Source of the DNA: Thermoplasmata archaeon
GTDB lineage: Archaea; Thermoplasmatota; Thermoplasmata; Thermoplasmatales; Thermoplasmataceae
Length of the DNA: 64,000 bases
Direction: 5' to 3'
Assembly (NCBI GenBank): GCA_021820525.1
Contig: JAKADM010000001.1
Coordinates: 248,001-312,000, forward strand
The notes beneath the pieces were generated by a model that saw nothing but the letters and a program-made list of their open reading frames with translations, did not search any database and was not told where the DNA came from. The position numbers were made by a program, and so were the translations under genes. Below are positions 33,286 to 36,080 of the stretch, piece after piece. Each line of letters starts with the position of its first letter. The first letter of the stretch is position 1.

Positions 33286-33882
33286 TTGACTCTTTATCAG
33301 AAAAAGTTTAATATTGACAATTGCATGAAAATATGCATGGATGGAAATCAGGGCAATGATATCAGAAGCAGGGTTGAGGATGACAGGTCAATCCTGAAGA
33401 AGATTGAACTTGCCATACCCGGCTTCGCAGGTTACAGAGAAAAGGAAGATATCAGGACCTCCGATGAACTGCTCAGGTCCCAGATATCCGGGAAGATAGA
33501 CAGATACCTTCATAATCTTAAGGAGGCAAGACAGAATCTGGCGACATGCTTCAAATTAAATAATTTAAATCAACTTGCGATGGCAATTTCCAATATGGAG
33601 TCTCTAAAAAACAAAATATATGACGCAGAGCAGGGATATTCAGGCATAGCCTTTCCAGTAAATGTGGATGATTCTGTTCTTGACAGGATATATGAGTTTG
33701 ATTATTCCTTTATAAATTCTGTGGAGAGCGCAGGAAAGGAATGCGACAAATTAAATGACCCCTGTTCCATGGATGATAATACTGTTATGCAGATAATTGT
33801 CAATATCAACAACGCAATAAAAAAAAGTGAATCTGCGTGGCAGGAAAGAATTGAAACTGTTGAAAATATAAAGGTGAAATAA
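33286..33882 (+). CDS. alpha-helical protein of the SPFH/zinc-ribbon operon
   Basis: Not a named family to me. After the start the sequence reads PGFAGYREKEDIRTSDELLR (near residues 44-63), then a long helical stretch with heptad character and an acidic/basic C-terminus. I recall similar pieces (GYxxKExxRxxDxLLR) in bacterial proteins next to SPFH-like genes, but I cannot verify that here. The start may be TTG 33286 or ATG 33325; TTTTATATT lies at 33250-33258. Its stop overlaps the next ATG by one base (TAATG), so it is the first gene of a three-gene operon. Confidence 0.6.
   Translation: MTLYQKKFNIDNCMKICMDGNQGNDIRSRVEDDRSILKKIELAIPGFAGYREKEDIRTSDELLRSQISGKIDRYLHNLKEARQNLATCFKLNNLNQLAMAISNMESLKNKIYDAEQGYSGIAFPVNVDDSVLDRIYEFDYSFINSVESAGKECDKLNDPCSMDDNTVMQIIVNINNAIKKSESAWQERIETVENIKVK
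33871..33877 (+). promoter_or_regulatory. ribosome-binding site of the SPFH gene
   Basis: AAGGTGA ends 4 bases before ATG 33882; with the one-base stop/start overlap it supports translational coupling of the first two genes. Confidence 0.6.
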
Positions 33883-35033
33883 TGTTTGGGAAGAAATCCA
33901 AGGATATACCCTATTCAGGAGGAAGTGTTGCAGGCTCAATTACAATAGCGTGGGAAACACAGTTTAAGGAAGGAAACTCCATGTGGAAGGTTCCCAGGCT
34001 TATCAGGCTCAATGATAACATAGTTGTGAGGGAGGATGAAACTGCGGTTTTTTTCAGAGACGGAAAGGTTTTGACATATTTTGACAAGCCTGGAAGATAT
34101 GCCCTTACTGATTTCAATGCCCCCGTAGTGGGTGAACTTCTGAAGTTCTTCACGGGTGTACAGCAACAGGCAGAAGTTTATTATATCCAGAGAAGGGTTA
34201 TGGATGGGAAGTATGGAAGCACGTCACCATACCAGTTTATGGATCCAACCTTTGGCATTGTCAATCTAAGAGTATTCGGGGAATACAGGTGGAAAATTTC
34301 TGATCCGGGACAGTTCATAAACCAATTCGTGGGAACATTCAATGCCGTGACATCAGCCGACGTTGAATCGCGCCTGAGAGATCAGATCGTTCTTTTAATA
34401 TACACAACCATTGGAAAAATTAAGGAGAATGGAATCAAGGTAACCGACCTTCCTGCAAACTTGACAAACATTGAGCAGGCAGTTTTGGGCCTGGCCCCGG
34501 CAAACTTCCAGCAATATGGAATCGAAATAGAAAAACTTCAGGGCATTAACATTTCCCTTCCTGACGACGTACAGAAAGCCATAGATACAAGATCGGAAAT
34601 GTCCGTTCTTGGAGTGAACTACCTGCAATACCAGGCGGGGCAGGCAATGGTCGATGCTTCCAAGAATCCTAACGGTTTTGCAGGGCTTGGAGCAGGAATG
34701 GGTGTGGGATTGGGTGCAGGTGCAGGCATGGGATATGCCATGTCTGGTCCAATGATGCAGGGATCCCAGATGCAGACCAAAACATGCCCAAAATGCGGTT
34801 CTGCAGTTCCCGCTAATTCCTCTTTCTGTCCCAATTGCGGAAACGACATTCGTACACAGGGAAATCAAATGATTAAATGCCCAAAATGTGGTGCAGAAGT
34901 TCCTTCAGGTTCCAAATTTTGCCCTGAGTGTGGAAATTCCTTGATGGCCCCATCTGTGGTAAAATGCCAAAAGTGTGGAAAGGAATGGCCAGCCGGAACA
35001 AAGTTCTGCCCGGAATGTGGAGAAAAATTGTGA
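33882..35033 (+). CDS. SPFH-domain protein with three C-terminal zinc ribbons (YdjI-like)
   Basis: Residues about 30-235 form an SPFH/Band-7-like domain (FFRDGKVLTYFDKPGRYALT at the beginning; DVESRLRDQIVLLIYTTIGKI near the middle), of the type annotated as virion-core protein or YdjI. A Gly/Met-rich linker (about 262-290) is followed by three C-x2-C...C-x2-C zinc ribbons (about 301-325, 331-353, 360-381). No membrane helix. It probably assembles on the membrane or on a partner. Bacterial YdjI-like proteins are tied to PspA membrane-stress recruitment; transfer of that role here is inference. Confidence 0.8.
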   Translation: MFGKKSKDIPYSGGSVAGSITIAWETQFKEGNSMWKVPRLIRLNDNIVVREDETAVFFRDGKVLTYFDKPGRYALTDFNAPVVGELLKFFTGVQQQAEVYYIQRRVMDGKYGSTSPYQFMDPTFGIVNLRVFGEYRWKISDPGQFINQFVGTFNAVTSADVESRLRDQIVLLIYTTIGKIKENGIKVTDLPANLTNIEQAVLGLAPANFQQYGIEIEKLQGINISLPDDVQKAIDTRSEMSVLGVNYLQYQAGQAMVDASKNPNGFAGLGAGMGVGLGAGAGMGYAMSGPMMQGSQMQTKTCPKCGSAVPANSSFCPNCGNDIRTQGNQMIKCPKCGAEVPSGSKFCPECGNSLMAPSVVKCQKCGKEWPAGTKFCPECGEKL

Positions 35034-35038
35034 GGTGA
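35032..35038 (+). promoter_or_regulatory. ribosome-binding site of the zinc-ribbon gene
   Basis: GAGGTGA lies in the 9-base gap before ATG 35043. A clear SD before an internal operon gene contrasts with the leaderless style of first genes in this window. Confidence 0.6.
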
Positions 35039-35042
35039 AAAT

Positions 35043-36080
35043 ATGTATTGTATAAAATGTGGAAATCAACTTCCAGATGATGCAAAGTTTTGTTCTAAAT
35101 GCGGCGCGCCTGTTACAGGAACGAACCAGAACCAGCAGGTTCAGGGAAATGGCCAGACACAGGGCGATAACAGATCTGTAATCGCCTCCTCCACTGTAAC
35201 TGAACTGAAATGTCCCGGATGTGGAGCACCCATAAAACCTGTTCAGGGAGAGACTGTGGTCACATGTGAATATTGTGGCACAAGCGTGAGCCTTAATGTT
35301 CAGGGATGGCAGAATGTTCAAAAGCATTCCATGCTGCCACTTACTGTGGAGGATACATCTGCACTGAAGCAGATAATTAAAAAACATTTGGACCACGGGC
35401 TCCTTTCAAGGCACATATTTGAGGAATCAAAGGAGGAAGAACTGACCCTTTCCTATGTTCCCTACTGGATTGTTCCTGTGTCTGCAACAACAAACTTCAG
35501 ATATCTCAGTGTGGCCTCAGAGATTGGTACCCTTGCAATGGACGCCGCCATAATGGGTGCCATGGATGAAGGCATGAACAGAGGTGGAATGGGTGGTGGA
35601 CTTGTGGATGGTATGATGATTGGTGGAATCATGGGTGGCGGAATGATGGGAAATAACAATTCCGTGAGAGGTGGAAGCCTTGGGCACAACTATAATTATC
35701 CCGTGGTTGCAATCAAAGGAGAGGGAAAACTTCAGCCGTCCAACTATAAATTCGATCTTGAAAAAAGAGTATCCTATGATCCTAATAGGATAATGAAAAG
35801 CATCAAGGTACTTAACGGAGATATAGATGAAGAGACTGCAAAGCAAATGAGTAAAAGCTATGTGACAAATGCTCAGGAAAGCTTTGTAAGGCAAAAATAT
35901 CATCATATTGAATCCATAAATACCCAATGCATTGCATCAACCCCAGAGCTTTTACACGCTCCGGTATGGATTGGAAAGTATTCCTATAAAAAGAAAGAGT
36001 TTTTCGTTGCTGTGGATGCTTCCAGTGGAGAAGTGATGAATACGGACATTGAGAAGAATAGTGGGGTTATGAAAGAATAA
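35043..36080 (+). CDS. double zinc-ribbon protein (YdjG-like)
   Basis: Two zinc ribbons: one at residues 3-20 (MYCIKCGN, then FCSKCGAP), and a second at about 57-78 (CPGCGAP, then CEYCGTS), resembling TFIIB-type knuckles. A Gly/Met-rich loop (near 165-215, GGMGGGLV and GGIMGGGMMG) separates a middle alpha/beta part from a C-terminal domain that ends with VAVDASSGEV. No clear membrane helix. It follows the SPFH gene by 9 bases; its 3' end overlaps a convergent hydrolase gene by 14. Architecture recalls Bacillus YdjG, by memory only. Confidence 0.65.
   Translation: MYCIKCGNQLPDDAKFCSKCGAPVTGTNQNQQVQGNGQTQGDNRSVIASSTVTELKCPGCGAPIKPVQGETVVTCEYCGTSVSLNVQGWQNVQKHSMLPLTVEDTSALKQIIKKHLDHGLLSRHIFEESKEEELTLSYVPYWIVPVSATTNFRYLSVASEIGTLAMDAAIMGAMDEGMNRGGMGGGLVDGMMIGGIMGGGMMGNNNSVRGGSLGHNYNYPVVAIKGEGKLQPSNYKFDLEKRVSYDPNRIMKSIKVLNGDIDEETAKQMSKSYVTNAQESFVRQKYHHIESINTQCIASTPELLHAPVWIGKYSYKKKEFFVAVDASSGEVMNTDIEKNSGVMKE

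What the first reader, a model, noticed from the sequence alone, without database searches (positions are those of the whole stretch)
33286..36080. Three-gene SPFH/zinc-ribbon module: candidate uncharacterised envelope system
A helical protein, an SPFH protein ending in three zinc ribbons and a protein with two more zinc ribbons and a Gly/Met-rich loop are translated as a coupled block (TAATG, then a 9-base gap with a strong SD). The set recalls Bacillus ydjGHI around PspA. Here there is no PspA in the block, and the host has no cell wall, so the module may guard a naked membrane.
Basis: partly seen in the sequence, partly recalled or inferred. Interest (0 to 1): 0.72.

Follow-up and report, generated by a model that had tools for sequence, protein, structure and literature searches.

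The report
Archaeal membrane-scaffold gene trio without PspA
Three linked genes encode a soluble scaffold protein of the kind a soil bacterium uses to bring its membrane-repair protein to the membrane, a zinc-binding helper and an unnamed helical partner; scaffold and partner travel together across two archaeal phyla that rarely have the repair protein, which makes the unnamed partner worth testing.

Summary
The three genes are real and coupled as described; gene 1 probably starts at 33337, not 33286. Gene 2 (p2) is a soluble SPFH protein of the B. subtilis YdjI type: PF13421, E=3e-39, three C-terminal zinc ribbons, no transmembrane segment. Gene 3 (p3) belongs to the zinc-ribbon family beside bacterial SPFH genes and looks like YdjG, but lacks the membrane anchor. 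Gene 1 (p1) matches no Pfam family; it is a predicted helical bundle, distantly related to the unexplained Leptospira family LIMLP_15305.

New here: p1 is a near-obligate partner of this SPFH type in archaea. In 151 genomes of a second archaeal phylum, all 78 with p2 also carry p1, 65 directly upstream. The trio recurs in Thermoplasmatota and Nitrososphaerota. PspA is absent from the held genome and clear in only 1 of 194 genomes of the phylum. Some Methanomassiliicoccales also carry a TPM (YdjH-type) gene nearby.

Best reading: a PspA-free archaeal relative of the YdjGHI scaffold with p1 as dedicated partner, probably peripheral at the membrane. The "naked membrane" idea is not supported: 13 of 19 sampled genomes of the host's family lack the module, and walled archaea have it. 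Function is untested.

The parts
33337..33882 (+). p1: 181-aa helical protein, near-obligate partner of the SPFH gene; no Pfam family; similar to NCBIfam NF047596 (LIMLP_15305) below its cut-off
33286..33336 (+). Upstream in-frame extension from TTG; probably not translated
   Evidence: the same-genus homologue starts at the ATG matching 33337
33391..33456 (+). Conserved motif of p1 (window ILKKIELAIPGFAGYREKEDIR; family consensus LKKIQ..IPG[YF]rGYR..ED.R), moderately amphipathic (moment about 0.41)
33882..35033 (+). p2: soluble SPFH (Band_7_1) protein, YdjI type, 383 aa
34002..34604 (+). SPFH domain of p2 (residues 41-241)
   Evidence: PF13421 E=2.8e-39
34674..34742 (+). Gly/Ala-rich low-complexity segment of p2 with four Gly invariant in 18 homologues
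34770..35024 (+). Three C-terminal zinc ribbons of p2
   Evidence: of 137 homologue sequences 88 have three and 46 have two
35034..35038 (+). Shine-Dalgarno GGTGA of p3; a second one at 33873-33877 precedes p2
35043..36080 (+). p3: 345-aa protein with two zinc ribbons and an alpha/beta domain, homologous to zinc-ribbon proteins beside bacterial SPFH genes; no transmembrane segment
35517..35654 (+). Gly/Met-rich disordered insertion of p3 (residues 159-204) between two long predicted strands

Best explanation
The block is a PspA-free archaeal relative of the bacterial YdjGHI scaffold module. p2, a soluble SPFH protein, assembles into an oligomeric platform (inferred from its family). p3 is a YdjG-type adaptor whose zinc ribbons and YpeB/NTF2-like alpha/beta domain contact the platform (homology shown; contact and fold class inferred). 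p1, a helical-bundle protein made just before p2, binds p2 directly as its dedicated partner (co-occurrence and adjacency shown, binding inferred) and does the job that PspA or YdjH does in B. subtilis, as effector or membrane recruiter (inferred). Zinc ribbons, found on p2, on p3 and in some lineages on p1, probably hold the parts together. In related archaea p3 is anchored by C-terminal transmembrane helices. In the window's lineage the anchor is missing, so the complex would meet the membrane only peripherally, through Gly/Ala-rich p2, Gly/Met-rich p3 or the amphipathic front of p1. Likely role: membrane homeostasis or stress response.
For: p2 is YdjI-type: PF13421 E=2.8e-39 with C-terminal zinc ribbons and no TM segment, the layout published for YdjI (PMC8581546). 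p3 profile hits SPFH-adjacent zinc-ribbon proteins of Comamonas (E=2.7e-21) and Paracoccus (E=8e-18), both ending in a TM helix; hhalign 97.7%, E=2e-12. PMC11237479 describes YdjG as two zinc ribbons, a YpeB-related NTF2-like domain and a TM segment. p1-p2 linkage: all 78 genomes with strong p2 have p1, 65 directly upstream, 71 of 151 have neither; p1 upstream in 49 of 56 survey loci and 79 of 80 p2-selected loci. PspA rare: 1 of 194 over cut-off; 1 of 32 module-bearing genomes. Some Methanomassiliicoccales carry p1, p2, two TM-anchored p3-like genes, a further zinc-ribbon gene and a TPM gene on one strand. The trio probably passed between phyla with its order kept.
Against: No experiment links the window's proteins to a membrane and none has a TM segment. 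YdjG itself could not be fetched, so p3 = YdjG rests on a published description plus homology to other bacterial SPFH-neighbour proteins. The p3 model matches no solved structure and its YpeB link is a non-significant Pfam hit (PepSY, E=0.16). p1 shows no detectable kinship to PspA or ESCRT-III, so equivalence would be functional only. The own genome is 86% complete.
Confidence: 0.5

Rival explanations
1. Cytosolic SPFH particle: without TM anchors p2 forms a soluble ring or cage (as the SPFH-like shoulder of the major vault protein does), p1 and p3 are its cap or cargo adaptors, and the role is protein quality control or storage rather than membrane upkeep.
For: No TM segment in any of the three proteins nor in any of 137 p2 homologues; soluble SPFH subfamilies (SPFH8, SPFH9) are recognised in PMC2636767. 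The vault parallel is recalled, not tested.
Against: Relatives in Methanomassiliicoccales and bacteria keep TM-anchored p3 forms, and YdjI, also TM-less, is membrane-bound through partners (PMC8581546).
Confidence: 0.2
2. Zinc-ribbon proteins acting on nucleic acid: the ribbons bind RNA or DNA and the block is a regulatory or RNA-handling complex.
For: Five zinc ribbons in two proteins, some resembling ribosomal or transcription-factor ribbons at weak E-values; a zinc-ribbon DNA-binding role was suggested for YdjG (PMC9239133).
Against: Short ribbons match many families by composition; the neighbours that recur near the block in several families are further zinc-ribbon, TPR-like or membrane proteins, not recognisable nucleic-acid genes.
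Confidence: 0.12
3. p1 is a highly diverged PspA/ESCRT-III protein, making this an ordinary PspA-SPFH system in disguise.
For: p1 sits beside the SPFH gene as pspA sits beside ydjGHI in B. subtilis, is all-helical, has an amphipathic front, and PspA itself is missing.
Against: hhalign probability 2% against PspA and 0.6% against an archaeal Snf7 (single target sequences); no PspA or ESCRT-III among the 50 best fold matches; predicted helices of 23-34 residues are short for the long ESCRT-III hairpin; no Pfam PspA match in 65 members.
Confidence: 0.08

Closest known systems
Bacillus subtilis pspA-ydjGHI (PSP) system
   Same: Soluble SPFH protein with C-terminal zinc ribbon (YdjI); YdjG-like partner with two zinc ribbons; genes in one block; some Methanomassiliicoccales add a TPM gene like YdjH
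   Different: No PspA in the held genome and almost none in the phylum; no TPM in the own genome; p3 lacks the TM anchor here; p1 is not known from the B. subtilis system (NF047596 rings in none of the 14 control genomes, which include B. subtilis)
Bacterial SPFH / TFIIB-type zinc-ribbon pairs (Comamonas and Paracoccus plasmids)
   Same: SPFH gene followed directly by a homologue of p3
   Different: No p1 detected; p3 homologue has a C-terminal TM helix; Paracoccus has a TelA gene upstream instead
NCBIfam NF047596 LIMLP_15305 family (Leptospira)
   Same: 64 of 65 archaeal p1 proteins match it, best E=4e-17
   Different: Far below the curated 210-bit cut-off; neighbourhood in Leptospira not examined; function unknown
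Archaeal Meth_adaptin ESCRT loci (PMC10936438)
   Same: Contain an SPFH protein with coiled-coil and zinc ribbon
   Different: No Vps4, adaptin or ESCRT-III gene was seen beside the window's block; no Snf7 found in the held own genome

Membership tests
PspA-YdjGHI (PSP) system | PspA/IM30 present | tested here: not met
   none in own genome (86% complete); 1 of 194 in phylum over cut-off; 1 of 32 module-bearing genomes
PspA-YdjGHI (PSP) system | Soluble SPFH protein with C-terminal zinc ribbon (YdjI) | tested here: met
PspA-YdjGHI (PSP) system | YdjG: two zinc ribbons plus YpeB-related NTF2-like domain | tested here: inconclusive
   homologous to bacterial SPFH-adjacent zinc-ribbon proteins; YdjG itself not available; YpeB link only E=0.16
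PspA-YdjGHI (PSP) system | Transmembrane anchor in YdjG | tested here: not met
   none in window p3; present in Methanomassiliicoccales and bacterial forms
PspA-YdjGHI (PSP) system | TPM-domain protein (YdjH) | tested here: not met
   none in own genome; present near the cluster in some Methanomassiliicoccales
PspA-YdjGHI (PSP) system | Membrane localisation and envelope-stress induction | not testable with these tools
   needs cells
YdjI-type SPFH family (PF13421) | Band_7_1 domain above curated cut-off | tested here: met
   135 bits against 24
LIMLP_15305 family (NF047596) | Score above curated 210 bits | tested here: not met
   48 bits, E=1.2e-12; distant relative only
PspA / ESCRT-III (for p1) | Detectable profile or fold similarity | tested here: not met

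The most novel reading that the evidence does not exclude
p1 founds an unnamed archaeal protein family that stands in for PspA: an SPFH-bound, membrane-acting effector, so that archaea without PspA kept the SPFH half of an ancient membrane-repair system and gave it a different working part.
Probability: 0.3. Interest if true: 0.8.

Novelty: new variant of a known kind. Interest (0 to 1): 0.58.

Why it matters
SPFH proteins are everywhere but what they work with is often unknown. A partner gene present in all 78 genomes that carry this SPFH type in one archaeal phylum gives a direct handle on its function, and shows that the YdjI/YdjG half of the phage-shock system exists, widely, without PspA. 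That makes it testable whether SPFH scaffolds have their own ancestral membrane role and what replaces PspA in archaea that lack it.

Tried and rejected
Plasmid and phage searches for p1: no hit. Viral contigs for p2: no relative. p1 against TelA, found upstream of the Paracoccus SPFH gene: hhalign 2.7%, rejected. p1 against PspA and Snf7: rejected. Solved-structure searches by sequence gave only zinc-ribbon or coiled-coil chance hits; fold searches gave nothing at E<=0.001. PADLOC: no credible defence match. The stomatin of the Cuniculiplasma cold-shock proteome (PMC7285479) is taken to be the genome's other SPFH protein, since its closest relatives there are Thermoplasma and Acidiplasma stomatins; it was not used as evidence.

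Full report
What is there. Window 33286-36080 (+) holds three ORFs: p1, p2 (33882-35033) and p3 (35043-36080). p1 and p2 overlap by TAATG; p3 follows after 9 bases; GGTGA precedes both p2 and p3. The same-genus genome G093 and the family alignment place the start of p1 at the ATG at 33337, not the TTG at 33286. The block is flanked by genes on the other strand, so it is probably one transcription unit.

p2. Pfam gives Band_7_1 (PF13421, E=2.8e-39, residues 41-241) and three C-terminal zinc ribbons. None of 137 p2 homologue sequences has a hydrophobic transmembrane window. This is the layout of B. subtilis YdjI: SPFH, low-complexity segment, C-terminal zinc finger, no TM segment, membrane-bound only through YdjG/YdjH (PMC8581546). 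A Paracoccus SPFH protein aligns with it at 100% hhalign probability.

p3. Two zinc ribbons and an alpha/beta domain (model pLDDT 82), with a disordered Gly/Met-rich stretch at residues 159-204 between two long strands. Its profile, built without the zinc ribbons, finds the genes directly downstream of SPFH genes on bacterial plasmids: Comamonas E=2.7e-21, Paracoccus E=8e-18; hhalign with the ribbons included gives 97.7%. Ravi et al. describe YdjG as two zinc ribbons followed by a YpeB-related NTF2-like domain and a TM segment (PMC11237479). p3 fits that, minus the TM segment. Bacterial and Methanomassiliicoccales forms end in one or two TM helices; the Thermoplasmatales and Nitrososphaerota forms do not.

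p1. No Pfam family. 64 of 65 relatives match NCBIfam NF047596, the unexplained Leptospira LIMLP_15305 family, best E=4e-17, below its curated cut-off. AlphaFold2 gives a helical bundle at pLDDT 84.7 with no significant fold match. Sequence profiles show no link to PspA, Snf7 or TelA. In 13 loci p1 itself carries an N-terminal zinc ribbon.

Linkage. In 194 Thermoplasmatota genomes, 50 of 55 with strong p2 also have p1 (read); p1 lies directly upstream in 49 of 56 loci. Of 80 loci found with p2 alone in the genome collection, 79 have p1 directly upstream, the other at a contig end; 71 have p3 downstream; a few of these contigs are the same as in the first survey. In 151 genomes of the Nitrososphaerota-containing phylum, all 78 with p2 (E<=1e-7) have p1, 65 immediately upstream and 12 within 6 kb, while 71 have neither. 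The genomes are related, so the Fisher p-value is not meaningful as a probability, but the pairing survives deep divergence. On the p2 tree the Nitrososphaerota form one clade inside Thermoplasmatota (midpoint-rooted, quick tree), so the trio probably moved between phyla as a unit.

PspA and other partners. PF04012 finds nothing in the held genome, one match over cut-off in 194 genomes of the phylum and one in 32 genomes bearing the module. TPM is absent from the own genome, but in six Methanomassiliicoccales-type loci (two of them probably the same contig) a TPM gene with a Gly-rich tail lies on the same strand downstream of p1, p2, two TM-anchored p3-like genes and a further zinc-ribbon gene. 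So archaea exist with YdjG-, YdjH- and YdjI-type genes together and p1 in front; those of them in the survey show no PspA.

Wall-less host. The host is a Thermoplasmatales archaeon, probably near Cuniculiplasma (inference: G093 has one 1.94-Mb contig, the top of the published size range in PMC5155288, where cells lack an S-layer). But 13 of 19 sampled genomes of this family have neither strong p2 nor p1, and the module is common in Nitrososphaerota. Its presence does not track the missing wall.

Mechanism. Shown: gene order, homology, co-occurrence, absence of TM segments and of PspA. Inferred: p2 oligomerises, p1 and p3 bind it, zinc ribbons join the parts, the complex works at the membrane. 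I put 0.5 on a peripheral membrane scaffold, 0.2 on a soluble SPFH particle, 0.12 on a nucleic-acid role and 0.08 on p1 being a disguised PspA.

Verdict. A real and widespread module; a new variant of the YdjGHI kind with an unexplained near-obligate partner. Interest 0.58.

Noticed in passing
L078:6085-7953, L079:7939-9679: In another Thermoplasmatota family (f22) a diverged p1 is followed directly by a 400-aa protein with one C-terminal zinc ribbon but no detectable SPFH domain, then (L079) a PAP2-type gene; possibly a diverged p2.
   Followed up: partly
L055:5226-6770 and 14 other loci, mostly of family f5: Where p3 is missing, p1-p2 are often preceded by a conserved zinc-ribbon protein of about 514 aa and, further up, a 310-aa protein that looks TPR-like; both on the same strand.
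   Followed up: no
L101:9872-10459 and about 30 other loci: A conserved zinc-ribbon protein of about 195 aa follows the two p3-like genes in Methanomassiliicoccales-type loci.
   Followed up: partly
L161:3683-8401 (Paracoccus plasmid CP038202.1): Bacterial SPFH plus p3-like pair preceded by a TelA-type gene, which is helical but not detectably related to p1.
   Followed up: partly
L072-L075 (genomes G140, G162, G156): A longer SPFH variant (about 440 aa) of the same family without p1 beside it, in one genus.
   Followed up: no
window 36067-36080: p3 overlaps the convergent hydrolase-like gene by 14 bases at their 3' ends.
   Followed up: no
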